A stretch of 21,510 bases of DNA from a virus. The DNA lies in IMG/VR virus record IMGVR_UViG_3300025890_000186, positions 1-21,510 of that record; one strand, written 5' to 3'. Shown piece by piece: positions 3,801 through 16,151 of this stretch. Both the position numbers and the translations under genes were made by a program. Position 1 is the first letter of the stretch; every line of letters begins with the position of its first letter. Under the pieces are notes generated by a model. That model did no database searches. It saw nothing but the letters and a program-made list of their open reading frames with translations, and was not told the origin of the DNA.

Positions 3801-5755
3801 CGACGATTTGTATCTGTAACTGTTATATTTACTGCCCACTCAGATTCAAATCTATCACCAAGAACTAGTTCTATGTTGCGGCCACCAGAATTAATTGCGG
3901 CATTTCCAGATTCACCATAAAGATGATCAGAACGATGGTTAAAGTTACCACCGTAAAGTTCGTAGGTAGTTGTATTATAAGTTGCTGCAGCTGAAACTGT
4001 TGTTGCAGTTGGTGAATAGAAAAAATTGCCAGGATATTCATCAAAAGTATACCGTGTTATTGCTGTTGCAATAGATTCAAAAACCAAAACTTCATTATCC
4101 AAAAATGTATGTGCAGCAGATAGAATGATTGTTGACTGATCTGTAATAGAAGTAACTGTAACTACGGTATCCTTATTGATACTGTTTGATTTTACAACCA
4201 TTCCCAGTGCAATATCATCTCCAGCATTTCCATCCAGTTTTACTGTTGTTGAATTAAATGTTGCACCATTGACAGAAGCAGATGATTTTAAAATAGTTGC
4301 TTGTTGTGCAGCATAATTTGATAGATATATTGGATAATAATAACCTACCGCCGCACCGTATGTTTTACTGGTTCCAAATACTGCATAGGGTTCTTCATTT
4401 ACAACTGTGCCTGCTTCAAGTTCAAAATTAAATAAATCGATGAAAGTATCTGTACCATCTTCTTGTACGATAGCATCACCATCAGTCTCATTAACAATAC
4501 CACCATGAATAGAAGTAACCACACCTTGAGCACTATTAATTAATCCTGCTGCTTCGGAAGCGTGATCTGAAAAAACTACAAGATCACCTACTTCATAATT
4601 AGCACCCGCATCATCAATTATAACACCTGAAACTGATCCTCTTTCCACTTTACCAACAGTAGCTGAAATATTACCACTACCAATTAGAATAGAAGTATCA
4701 AGATCAAGAACATCATCAGTGTTGTATAGTATTCCGTCATTTGTATTTGATACAGATGAAAGTAATTGATTAACAGTAAAAGTGTATCTTACATCTTCTT
4801 TAGAAGATATTCCATAAACATTTTCCCCAACTACAAAGGCACCAATTACACTTGAAATTTGAATTTCAACATAAGAAGTACCACCAGATATAGAAAAGGT
4901 TGATGCATTCTCAACAAGAGCAGTTGTTCCAGAAGTGACACCTGTAATTGATTGCCCAATGAGTTCATCTACAACAACATTACCAATACCAGAACAACGA
5001 ATAACAGTAGGCTTATCCCAATCTGCGGCAGATGGTTTCATCATAAATTGGTTGGGATAGAATACTTCTGCTTCTTCATCTAGAAGAATTTTCATAAAGA
5101 GCTTAGCAGCTTCCTTTGTTCCCTTTCTTCTATACAATTCAGTAATATGTTTTTCAAGATTTCTCTTATTAATTCCGTTTGCAAGATTAGTAGGAATTCC
5201 TGCCATAAAGGATTTGCGGAATTCTTCAATAAAATCATAGATAGTGTTATCAATATCAGCATATGCTAATAGTTGTTGAATATTTTGAACAGGATTTGCA
5301 CGATATTTTGTAACTACACCAGTTGCACCAGAGGTTCCGCCTGTTACAGTTTCGCCCGTCTCAAACAACTGTTGAGATGATATGAATAATCTTGGTGTTG
5401 CATTACCAAGGTCTTCAACCAAAACTGTTGCAGTTGCCTTGGATGTGCCACCCGTAATAATCTCACCATTCACAAATTTACCTGTACTACTGCGCTCTTG
5501 AATTGAACCAACTTCTGTGACAATCAAAGTTCCATCTTCAAGAAGAAGATTAGTAGGAGTTTCAATTTCCAAAAGGATATTATTAATATTGACTGTTAAC
5601 TGAAGTTCACCAGATTCAAGAAAGTGATAATACGATTTTAAAAATTGAGAAAATTGTGGATGATCTTCTGCAATAAAGTCAGGCAGCTGCCCATCAATTT
5701 GAGTACTAAGTTTATTTTTTAATTCTGGGGTCCAAGATAAATCAAAAGGTGCCAT
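887..5755 (-). CDS. Very large baseplate/tail structural protein (1622 aa)
   Basis: This is a giant virion protein encoded directly after gp6, the place taken by further baseplate wedge genes (gp7, gp8) in T4-like phages. Residues 23-47 (LPDFIAEDHPQFSQFLKSYY) and 165-235 (YADIDNTIYDFIEEF, then HITELYRRKGTKEAAKLF and VFYPNQFMM) form an alpha-helical N-terminal module that I recognise from large structural proteins of marine myophages. Within this module, G-x-x-x-TGGTS-x-AT segments repeat near residues 97-111 and 134-148, and a diverged copy lies near 266-280. From about residue 765 to 1605 the chain is dominated by more than twenty degenerate LEDG/LLEDS-type units, and overall it is strongly acidic. 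The start lies 2 nt after the gp6 stop, with only a weak Shine-Dalgarno, which suggests translational coupling. I cannot align it to T4 gp7, and its exact wedge position is inference. Confidence 0.75.
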   Translation of the reverse strand: MAPFDLSWTPELKNKLSTQIDGQLPDFIAEDHPQFSQFLKSYYHFLESGELQLTVNINNILLEIETPTNLLLEDGTLIVTEVGSIQERSSTGKFVNGEIITGGTSKATATVLVEDLGNATPRLFISSQQLFETGETVTGGTSGATGVVTKYRANPVQNIQQLLAYADIDNTIYDFIEEFRKSFMAGIPTNLANGINKRNLEKHITELYRRKGTKEAAKLFMKILLDEEAEVFYPNQFMMKPSAADWDKPTVIRCSGIGNVVVDELIGQSITGVTSGTTALVENASTFSISGGTSYVEIQISSVIGAFVVGENVYGISSKEDVRYTFTVNQLLSSVSNTNDGILYNTDDVLDLDTSILIGSGNISATVGKVERGSVSGVIIDDAGANYEVGDLVVFSDHASEAAGLINSAQGVVTSIHGGIVNETDGDAIVQEDGTDTFIDLFNFELEAGTVVNEEPYAVFGTSKTYGAAVGYYYPIYLSNYAAQQATILKSSASVNGATFNSTTVKLDGNAGDDIALGMVVKSNSINKDTVVTVTSITDQSTIILSAAHTFLDNEVLVFESIATAITRYTFDEYPGNFFYSPTATTVSAAATYNTTTYELYGGNFNHRSDHLYGESGNAAINSGGRNIELVLGDRFESEWAVNITVTDTNRRADEGFTLESGSGDISKITITDPGNGYLLLPTVTVRSQYGTNAKVFAITTDIGRISSVNVIDPGFSYTESPALNPRANFVIKDITGTFSVGAALTSHTGTVRGYDSTTQVLEVSIEDTISIEDESQGNTYNEGIRLEDSLIVNEYVTDNIIINADLVYEDNLVDQDGDRLLIDATSSSTEFIRLEDDQGELAMEFPQIVEFAQILLEDGEGSLRSEPDVLDGTRYFLCQESGFKTGSEAFLYELRQVKFITENSPDIITTDGGGNFIILNADISYEDDLLLNGTDSSSTNAGEKLLLNATDSSGTNDPSNLIVLEAGVTNSANEKLLYETNIPFTNLVLNGTNAALLHASEKILFEDVGIDFSAGTTSITTAAASATIAHADIAKLNFNLGASADKIGRFSGIENLISEELIRIQDSFYYQDFSYVIETSTGSDVYLNALKKSIHPAGFNVFSKVNTSTYISARASVGIAQPNINAESGLNDFFNRGLGTTFFSIFPDAINRRLGVTTGEEVNLLLENSIQQRVDDKFILEDGSEVGVDYEPDHPGEGFIQLEPPENVYLDFEAIQIIHGVGAGEFGVLLTEDSQDRIVSESAVVITNNLVIDSTSAGHLATSGTDAGSDLLTEDGLSFELEDSIQDGTSFMLSESTSFIERLLSEEESDIFVLEGVSQSDREVHVRSSFVTRLDATLNKSHNSGHGLLFLATTTINGITGDGIGLEVGNDQIGGRLLLNHPDLEDSFLLEDGSDVNVNQSVTKNTLSGLHSFNDEDFTRDSLIFFPNDNEGNEDDLIILEGSDTGTFKQEDGTTVAGTFGDDIILEEYTGFGIGVKLSLEKTFIARESSTDVGAKPFGIEEDVSLEPFTYPADIFVQSIGTLSLEASDNGSILIDHSGNTELVLESSEGGNILLETFFDDGHITLEGDDESTGFKYQLEDGTAIDTYVRLIDTRITDEFPFDGIVATFDNAFDNFDIEEV

Positions 5756-15018: not shown

Positions 15019-15117
15019 TTAGAAAAACATTACTGGGTCAAAGCCTAGAAATCCTAGACAAAACCCAATAAATGCTGCATTAAGGAATGCATGAACGAAG
15101 TAATTCATAGTAGTCAT
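15019..15117 (-). CDS. Possible membrane microprotein, 32 aa
   Basis: A 32-codon ORF with Shine-Dalgarno GAGG six bases upstream of the ATG at 15117; a second ATG is at 15108. Residues 9-26 (HAFLNAAFIGFCLGFLGF) would span a membrane once. It is the first ORF after the long structured leader made from the promoter at 15330-15358. It is very short, and the transcript could instead act as RNA only. Confidence 0.4.
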   Translation of the reverse strand: MTTMNYFVHAFLNAAFIGFCLGFLGFDPVMFF

Positions 15118-15163
15118 TTCAACCTCTTCAACCAAAATTCTTCGACGCTAGCTACTCAATGAG

Positions 15164-15257
15164 TAACACCCCCTTTATAACGCAGTGGCCACTACTAGGG
15201 GTACTTGCTATACCGTTGCGTGAGCTCTCGGTACATGACAGCAATGCTGCCGTGTTA
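15164..15257 (-). ncRNA. Candidate folded leader domain with kissing loops
   Basis: Between the three-way-junction element and the 32-aa ORF, the transcript can form several helices. UAACAC (15257-15252) pairs with GUGUUA (15169-15164) as a closing stem. A six-pair hairpin with an AUU loop lies at 15237-15251. UACCG/CGGUA pairs 15233-15229 with 15215-15211. CCCC/GGGG pairs 15201-15198 with 15173-15170. The loops of the last two carry ACGCA (15221-15217) and UGCGU (15184-15180), which could kiss. A palindrome, AGTGGCCACT, lies at 15184-15193. This was found by eye with a single sequence, so chance pairing is possible. Confidence 0.35.
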
Positions 15258-15263
15258 TGTTCG

Positions 15264-15322
15264 AAGAGAGACTAGCAGTGGAAAATCCCTAACAGGCGAA
15301 TCCTGTTCCAGAAGTCTCTCTC
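15264..15322 (-). ncRNA. Three-way-junction RNA element, copy 1
   Basis: The RNA starts at or near the predicted transcription start. P1 is a nine-pair helix between 15321-15313 and 15273-15265 (AGAGAGACU with AGUCUCUCU). Inside are UCUGG, then hairpin P2 (AACAGG, loop AUUCG, CCUGUU), AG, then short hairpin P3 (GGA, UUU, UCC), then ACUGCU leading into the P1 3' strand. Copy 2 at 15551-15610 has the same single-stranded segments with different but still complementary P2 and P3 stems. This supports a conserved RNA fold made on the minus strand. I know of no RNA family that matches. Confidence 0.65.
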
Positions 15323-15329
15323 TATTATT

Positions 15330-15358
15330 AATGTACCATATATTTAATACATTGTCAA
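15330..15358 (-). promoter_or_regulatory. Early sigma70-type promoter (TTGACA-17-TACATT)
   Basis: The -35 TTGACA is perfect, the spacer is 17 bp and the -10 is TACATT, followed by AATAATAGAGAGAG. The same TACATT-AATAATAGA block occurs at 15618 and 16123. The -35 lies inside the end of the 63-aa gene. Transcription would start at about 15323, the foot of the RNA element. Confidence 0.75.
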
Positions 15359-15535
15359 CCCATTAATTGCCCGTTCTTTGAATTTATCCACAGCCTCATT
15401 AAAGGATGCATCAAACACATGGCAGTCAGAGAAGTTCACCTTCTTCACCTCTACCTCATACTTGTAGTTACCATACGACCACAGAAAGACAGGAACGCCA
15501 TCAGTGGTATAACCTTTAGCAGCAAGAGTAGTCAT
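15344..15535 (-). CDS. Small early protein, 63 aa
   Basis: The frame is open from 15646, but the upstream 37 codons cover the promoter -10 and the RNA element, so they are not translated. The likely start is the ATG at 15535, with AGAAGGA eight bases upstream. The protein reads MTTLAAKGYTTDGVPVFLWS, then YKYEVEVKKVNFSDCHVFDA and an amphipathic helix FNEAVDKFKERAIN. It looks like a compact beta-strand/helix protein. Early expression is inferred from the host-like promoter, and a role in host takeover is only a guess. Confidence 0.65.
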   Translation of the reverse strand: MTTLAAKGYTTDGVPVFLWSYGNYKYEVEVKKVNFSDCHVFDASFNEAVDKFKERAINGLTMY

Positions 15536-15550
15536 ATCATCATCCTTCTC

Positions 15551-15610
15551 AGGGGAGACTAGCAGTGGCACATGCCCTAGTGGGTGGTTCCCACTCCAGA
15601 AGTCTCTCTC
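15551..15610 (-). ncRNA. Three-way-junction RNA element, copy 2
   Basis: Same architecture as copy 1. P1 pairs GAGACU (15606-15601) with AGUCUC (15560-15555). UCUGG is followed by P2 (AGUGGG, loop AACCA, CCCACU), AG, P3 (GGC, AUGU, GCC) and ACUGCU. Relative to copy 1, three P2 pairs and one P3 pair change on both sides and still pair, while all junction bases are identical. It begins at the predicted start of the transcript that encodes the 63-aa protein, whose Shine-Dalgarno follows about 5 nt after P1. Confidence 0.68.
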
Positions 15611-15617
15611 TATTATT

Positions 15618-15646
15618 AATGTAACACACTCTAAGGATATTGTCAA
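15618..15646 (-). promoter_or_regulatory. Early sigma70-type promoter (TTGACA-17-TACATT)
   Basis: Perfect -35 TTGACA, 17-bp spacer and -10 TACATT. The spacer and flanks are nearly identical to the promoter at 16123-16151 (GAGTGTGT just before the -10), which shows duplication of the whole cassette. It drives RNA element copy 2 and the 63-aa gene. Confidence 0.78.
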
Positions 15647-16097: not shown

Positions 16098-16122
16098 TTT
16101 GTTATCCTTTCTTTCTATTATT

Positions 16123-16151
16123 AATGTAACACACTCAGAGGATATTGTCAA
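16123..16151 (-). promoter_or_regulatory. Early sigma70-type promoter (TTGACA-17-TACATT)
   Basis: Third copy of the TTGACA-17-TACATT-AATAATAGA cassette, with -35 at 16146-16151 and -10 at 16123-16128. The leader here is a short purine-rich stretch running straight into the Shine-Dalgarno of the 62-aa gene. Confidence 0.78.

What the first reader, a model, noticed from the sequence alone, without database searches (positions are those of the whole stretch)
15264..15610. Two-copy three-way-junction RNA with compensatory stem changes at transcript 5' ends
Two 60-nt elements lie 287 bp apart. Each sits directly at the predicted start of a transcript from a TTGACA-17-TACATT promoter. Both fold as P1-UCUGG-P2-AG-P3-ACUGCU-P1'. 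The junction strands are identical, while three P2 pairs (A-U to G-C, C-G to U-A, A-U to G-C) and one P3 pair (A-U to C-G) change on both sides and still pair. Such covariation is strong evidence for selected RNA structure. No riboswitch or ribozyme core that I know fits (hammerhead, twister, preQ1, glnA-type). It could cap the mRNA 5' end against decay, sense a ligand, or regulate early genes.
Basis: partly seen in the sequence, partly recalled or inferred. Interest (0 to 1): 0.82.

Follow-up and report, generated by a model that had tools for sequence, protein, structure and literature searches.

The report
Structured RNA leader in marine phages
Marine T4-like viruses of bacteria start some of their early transcripts with a conserved 55-60 base RNA that folds into a three-armed shape; it is real, widespread in ocean virus DNA and in no RNA catalogue, but what it does is still unknown.

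Summary
Two copies of a three-way-junction RNA lie on the minus strand (15264-15323 and 15554-15610), each just 3' of a TTGACA-17-TACATT promoter. Pattern scans of IMG/VR, refined with a covariance model, found about 70 further phage contigs (49 distinct copies pooled). P2 and P3 stay paired through changes on both sides (8 of 9 pairs; no shuffle of 500 matches). The junction UUCUGG / AG / ACUGCUAG is nearly invariant. In all 46 copies tallied, a mismatch facing itself across the junction is either U.U or A.A, never mixed. A promoter lies upstream in 45 of 49 copies (1.7% of random positions). No Rfam family matches. No convincing copy was found in Melnitz, HTVC008M or AG-345-F15, or in about 200 bacterial genomes searched with stricter filters.

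The host is a marine T4-like myovirus related to Methylophilales phage Melnitz. Copies sit mostly in the variable small-gene region around gp41 and uvsX, before unrelated small ORFs or noncoding stretches. The same promoter also occurs without the element.

Best reading: a new cis-acting structured 5' leader of early transcripts, most likely acting on RNA stability or 5'-end processing. An unknown ligand or protein, or RNA polymerase antitermination, remain open. The mechanism is inferred, not shown.

The parts
15264..15323 (-). Copy 1 of the three-way-junction leader: P1 GAGAGAGACU/AGUCUCUC, J12 UCUGG, P2 AACAGG-AUUCG-CCUGUU, J23 AG, P3 GGA-UUU-UCC, J31 ACUGCU
   Evidence: CM R1 75 bits (this copy is in the model)
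15554..15610 (-). Copy 2: same junction strands, P2 AGUGGG-AACCA-CCCACU, P3 GGC-AUGU-GCC; P1 shorter (GAGACU/AGUCUC, then an A.C mismatch)
   Evidence: CM R1 86 bits (this copy is in the model)
15321..15358 (-). Predicted promoter of copy 1: TTGACA-N17-TACATT
15609..15646 (-). Predicted promoter of copy 2: TTGACA-N17-TACATT
15344..15535 (-). 63-aa ORF (MTTLAAKGYTTDG...) after copy 2, SD GAGAAGGA; relatives follow the element in several other phages; no confident PHROGs family
15118..15263 (-). About 146-nt noncoding, foldable stretch between copy 1 and the next ORF
15019..15117 (-). 32-aa ORF (MTTMNYFVHAFL...) downstream of copy 1
16114..16151 (-). Third copy of the same promoter, without the element (internal comparison)

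Best explanation
This is a new family of cis-acting structured 5' leader RNA carried on early transcripts of a group of marine T4-like phages. Host sigma70-type RNA polymerase starts just upstream. The first 55-60 nt fold into a compact three-way junction: P1 joins the 5' end of the message to the stretch just before the Shine-Dalgarno sequence, P2 and P3 stack on a nearly invariant junction, and the SD is left free. The most likely use, which is inferred, is to control the lifetime or 5'-end processing of short early transcripts, coding or noncoding. A rigid 5' structure would hinder 5'-end-dependent decay, and the invariant junction would hold the fold or bind a host or phage factor. Shown here: the structure, its phylogenetic spread, its promoter-proximal place, and its independence of the downstream gene and of the promoter. 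Inferred: that it is transcribed as predicted, and the stability role. Rough sub-confidences: real structured RNA 0.97; cis-acting leader 0.85; stability or 5'-end role as the main one 0.35.
For: About 70 related contigs (CM scores). Pairing kept through 11 pairs with two-sided changes, 0/500 shuffles. Junction nearly invariant, and the 12/57 mismatch switches U.U to A.A as a unit (38 vs 8, none mixed, when L306, L307 and L315 are read from the listing; the script's own tally is 37 vs 6, Fisher 1.6e-7). Promoter upstream in 45/49 distinct copies, most often 17 nt from the -10 end to the core, against 348/20000 random positions. Leaders precede unrelated small ORFs, and also noncoding stretches with no ORF. 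Folding keeps the SD mostly unpaired (mean 0.71, against 0.51 without the 5' strand of P1). No U-tract after P1' in the window copies or in the listed relatives apart from L306, so it is not normally a terminator. In the 115-kb record two supported copies lie 26 kb apart.
Against: Nothing measures decay or transcript ends. In L152 a separate hairpin, and in L126/L322/L337 some tens of nucleotides, lie between the predicted start and P1, so a blunt paired 5' end is not what is conserved. A merely protective stem does not need an invariant junction. In L306 P1 is followed by a T-run and could terminate transcription.
Confidence: 0.45

Rival explanations
1. Ligand- or protein-responsive regulator (riboswitch or operator): the nearly invariant junction binds a small molecule or a phage/host RNA-binding protein, and P1 formation controls access to the SD, which could otherwise pair with the pyrimidine strand of P1.
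For: Conservation sits in the junction while P2/P3 sequences and loops vary, as in aptamer cores. SD exposure falls when the 5' P1 strand is removed. Glutamine riboswitches are reported in this phage group (PMC9004378).
Against: Downstream genes are unrelated small ORFs with no metabolic theme, and some copies precede no ORF. P1 is long and purine/pyrimidine, so the SD effect may be composition only. No Rfam riboswitch matches.
Confidence: 0.27
2. Antitermination or anti-pause RNA like HK022 put: the nascent leader stays on RNA polymerase and lets it read through terminators in poorly translated early regions.
For: Similar place and size as put: about 70 nt, putL just downstream of an early promoter, putR about 270 nt downstream of the start (PMC9378689). 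Copies lead noncoding stretches.
Against: put has two stem-loops, not a three-way junction. In the window the next element-bearing promoter is only 288 bp away, so processive antitermination would be redundant. P1 abuts the SD.
Confidence: 0.13
3. PeSL-like shuffling cassette: promoter plus structured leader is mainly a conserved seam for homologous recombination that swaps small genes in the variable region.
For: The same promoter+element joins many unrelated ORFs in the gp41-uvsX variable region and recurs within genomes.
Against: A recombination seam needs sequence identity, but P2 and P3 change sequence while keeping pairing, which is selection on RNA structure. U-tracts are lacking, except in L306.
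Confidence: 0.1
4. Self-cleaving or otherwise catalytic small RNA with a new core.
For: Compact three-way junction with an invariant core.
Against: No match to any ribozyme family in Rfam. Cleavage would remove the 5' leader from the mRNA, with no obvious product role.
Confidence: 0.04

Closest known systems
PeSL (promoter-early stem-loop) elements of T4-type phages (Arbiol 2010; Comeau 2014; known here from memory and from citations in PMC4503421)
   Same: Early promoter coupled to a structured element, repeated before unrelated ORFs in variable regions of T4-like genomes
   Different: PeSLs are described in the 2014 title as promoter-terminator composites; here a three-way junction with an invariant junction, compensatory changes, and usually no U-tract
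HK022 put RNA
   Same: Structured RNA of similar length just downstream of early phage promoters, before different genes
   Different: put has two stem-loops acting on RNA polymerase; the fold differs and no antitermination was tested
5'-terminal stem-loops that stabilise bacterial mRNA (ompA type, from memory)
   Same: Stem at or near the transcript 5' end, just before the ribosome binding site
   Different: Those need only a stem; here a nearly invariant multi-branch junction is kept
Glutamine (glnA) riboswitch in Melnitz and pelagimyophages (PMC9004378)
   Same: Structured RNA in related phages, in a transcript behind an early promoter
   Different: No Rfam match between the two; different junction
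rpsL three-stem leader motif of Pelagibacter (PMC2704228)
   Same: Three-stem 5' UTR motif of marine bacteria
   Different: There P1 has a conserved bulge and the P3 loop is conserved; here P3 loops vary; the CM found no copy in 97 SAR11-order genomes (weak negative)

Membership tests
PeSL | Early promoter directly joined to a structured element | tested here: met
   45/49 distinct copies have a predicted promoter upstream
PeSL | Stem-loop acts as a terminator (stem plus U-tract) | tested here: not met
   No U-tract after P1' in the listed copies except L306
PeSL | Repeated next to different ORFs in variable regions | tested here: met
PeSL | Mediates recombination | not testable with these tools
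   needs crosses or population breakpoints
put RNA | Two stem-loops binding the RNA polymerase beta' zinc domain | tested here: not met
   Fold is a three-way junction; binding untested
put RNA | Suppresses termination | not testable with these tools
   in vitro transcription needed
Any Rfam 15 family (riboswitches, ribozymes, leaders) | Covariance-model match | tested here: not met
Riboswitch (general) | Conserved aptamer-like core in a 5' UTR | tested here: met
Riboswitch (general) | Specific ligand and ligand-dependent expression | not testable with these tools
   biochemistry needed
Conserved structured RNA | Compensatory changes across homologues | tested here: met

The most novel reading that the evidence does not exclude
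The element is a new class of sensor or polymerase-acting RNA shared by early transcripts of marine T4-like phages: an invariant junction (tandem U.G/G.U, and a U.U-or-A.A switch pair) binds one factor, and so sets the fate of several early coding and noncoding transcripts at once.
Probability: 0.3. Interest if true: 0.82.

Novelty: new variant of a known kind. Interest (0 to 1): 0.62.

Why it matters
As far as I know, well-supported structured RNA families specific to tailed phages are few, and this one sits at predicted starts of early transcripts in a marine group whose early control is poorly understood (Melnitz lacks identifiable middle promoters, PMC9004378). A 60-nt element with a defined junction, natural no-element comparisons behind the same promoter and ready compensatory variants makes early post-transcriptional control in these phages directly testable.

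Tried and rejected
A first loose pattern gave mostly chance hits in coding sequence; only L074 was real, as shown by tighter scans. blastn of single copies against cultured phages found nothing. The CM found no copy in Melnitz or AG-345-F15 and only E=0.68 in HTVC008M. The RNAalifold junction CUGG/CUAG was rejected: variants ACUGCA, ACUGAA and ACUGUU change its G-U and G-C pairs, while the P1 register GACU/AGUC stays intact. The continuous helix U14.G55, G15.U54, G16-C53 cannot be tested by covariation because it is invariant, apart from one G.U to G-C change in the 115-kb record. Strand bias of wobbles is weak (11 GU vs 7 AC cells). A weak hit at 5069 of the 115-kb record lacks the core and was dropped. 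A tmRNA or known ncRNA downstream was looked for and not found.

Full report
WHAT IS THERE. The two copies lie on the minus strand, in the coding orientation of this window. Each begins directly after TTGACA-N17-TACATTAATAATAGA. The shared parts are P1 GAGACU/AGUCUC and flanks, J12 UCUGG, J23 AG and J31 ACUGCU. P2 and P3 differ in sequence and still pair. A third copy of the same promoter (16114-16151) has no element, so the element is separable from the promoter. Single-sequence folding is only moderately better than shuffles (z -2.1 and -1.8) and does not give the junction as the minimum, so comparative evidence was needed.

HOMOLOGUES. Pattern scans of IMG/VR and a covariance model gave about 70 contigs; 49 distinct copies were pooled. 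On 45 distinct aligned sequences 98.3% of cells pair, 11 pairs change on both sides (P2 5/6, P3 3/3, P1 3/8), and no shuffle of 500 reaches any of the measures. The CM alignment leans towards its own structure, but the unfitted MAFFT alignment of 29 sequences gave the same picture. Slid controls drop to about 40-50% paired. These controls do not remove relatedness; R-scape was not available.

JUNCTION. UUCUGG, AG and ACUG(C/U)UAG are nearly invariant. In a relaxed scan that left the relevant positions open, the first base of J12 and the last base of J31 proved to change together: U with U, or A with A. Reading L306, L307 and L315 from the listing in addition to the script's tally (37 and 6, Fisher 1.6e-7) makes 38 and 8, none mixed. 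Near-identical elements differ by exactly this switch (L124/L129 versus L310/L316), and L153 carries one copy of each kind 310 bp apart, so at least two double changes are likely. The variants rule out the alternative CUGG/CUAG register. A continuous P1 extension through a tandem U.G/G.U is attractive but invariant; one U-to-C change in the 115-kb record keeps its G pair. Extremes of the family are L340 (UUCG and GAAA tetraloops), L306 (P1 followed by a T-run before the SD), and L322/L337, where P3 is replaced by AUACCA and one core is nested in another.

PLACE. 45 of 49 copies have a TTGAC(A/T) promoter upstream, most often with 17 nt between the -10 box and the core; of the rest, L129 is cut by the contig end and L336 has TTGCCA. 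Random positions have such a promoter in 1.7%. Many of the contigs carry relatives of the window's gp41-like helicase and/or UvsX, and the copies mostly lie in the small-gene region around them. gp41 and UvsX are closest to Methylophilales phage Melnitz (70% and 81% identity), so the window is a marine T4-like myovirus. Records of 40, 47 and 83 kb each have one copy, the window two, and the 115-kb record two supported copies. The model found none in 97 SAR11-order and 100 Burkholderiales-order genomes (strict filters and no positive control, a weak negative; the orders are inferred from the seed loci L232 and L219).

WHAT FOLLOWS IT. In many copies an ATG with an SD lies 17-24 nt after the junction. 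The ORFs belong to unrelated small families: MTTLAAKG, MIDFID, MNMNKLKNG, MFDKDG, MTKEKK and others. The ten small ORFs tested (six ORFs found downstream of the element and four other window ORFs) had no confident PHROGs match. In other copies (L074/L131, L309/L312, L319, L322/L337) noncoding sequence follows. A role tied only to one gene product or only to translation is therefore unlikely.

MECHANISM. I favour a cis-acting leader that sets transcript stability or 5'-end processing, because it is indifferent to the downstream gene, serves coding and noncoding transcripts, lies at the 5' end and leaves the SD free. It remains inference: variable 5' extensions and the invariant junction point to some recognised surface as well. 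Ligand or protein sensing, put-like antitermination (PMC9378689) and PeSL-like shuffling (cited in PMC4503421; the originals were not held) are the rivals. Shuffling alone cannot explain compensatory changes.

COMPARISON. No Rfam 15 family matches at gathering level, nor within E 10 apart from a chance snoRNA hit outside the copies. PeSL is the closest known arrangement, but its terminator feature is not met; put is the closest functional parallel, but its fold differs. I file this as a new RNA family within the known kind of structured 5' leaders.

Noticed in passing
L125, L136, L139, L140, L141, L156, L161, L164, L165 (e.g. L139 minus strand, offset about 4509): A second conserved RNA-like element: GAGAGTAT-CCCGAATGGGCTTTCGTAAACTGCTGAATTGCTAAGTGGCCTG-ATACTCTC followed by TTTT, in several cases right behind an early promoter. 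No Rfam match in the three of these loci that were scanned (L139, L141, L161).
   Followed up: partly
L074, L123, L124, L129, L130, L131, L151, L309, L312, L337: A third conserved noncoding element around ATTAAGGTTGGTTGGCCCAC...GTGAAAGTTCC...GTGTGGG closed by a long stem, often downstream of the three-way-junction leader.
   Followed up: partly
L146, L319, L322: A shared stretch GAGGGACGCAGCTCGAAAC in noncoding sequence downstream of the element; ARAGORN finds no tmRNA or tRNA there.
   Followed up: no
window 15118-15263 (-): Noncoding, foldable stretch (-38.3 kcal/mol for 144 nt) after copy 1; only short weak matches in relatives.
   Followed up: partly
L123/L133/L134, L326: A two-codon ORF ATG-ACT-TAA with an SD follows the element; in L131 and L074 its start codon has decayed.
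   Followed up: no
L322, L337: Nested double version of the element whose outer P1 strand overlaps a following TTGAC sequence.
   Followed up: partly
L154 upstream of the element: About 150 nt inserted, relative to L126, between AACAAAG and CTCGRCACCC, with the look of another structured RNA.
   Followed up: no
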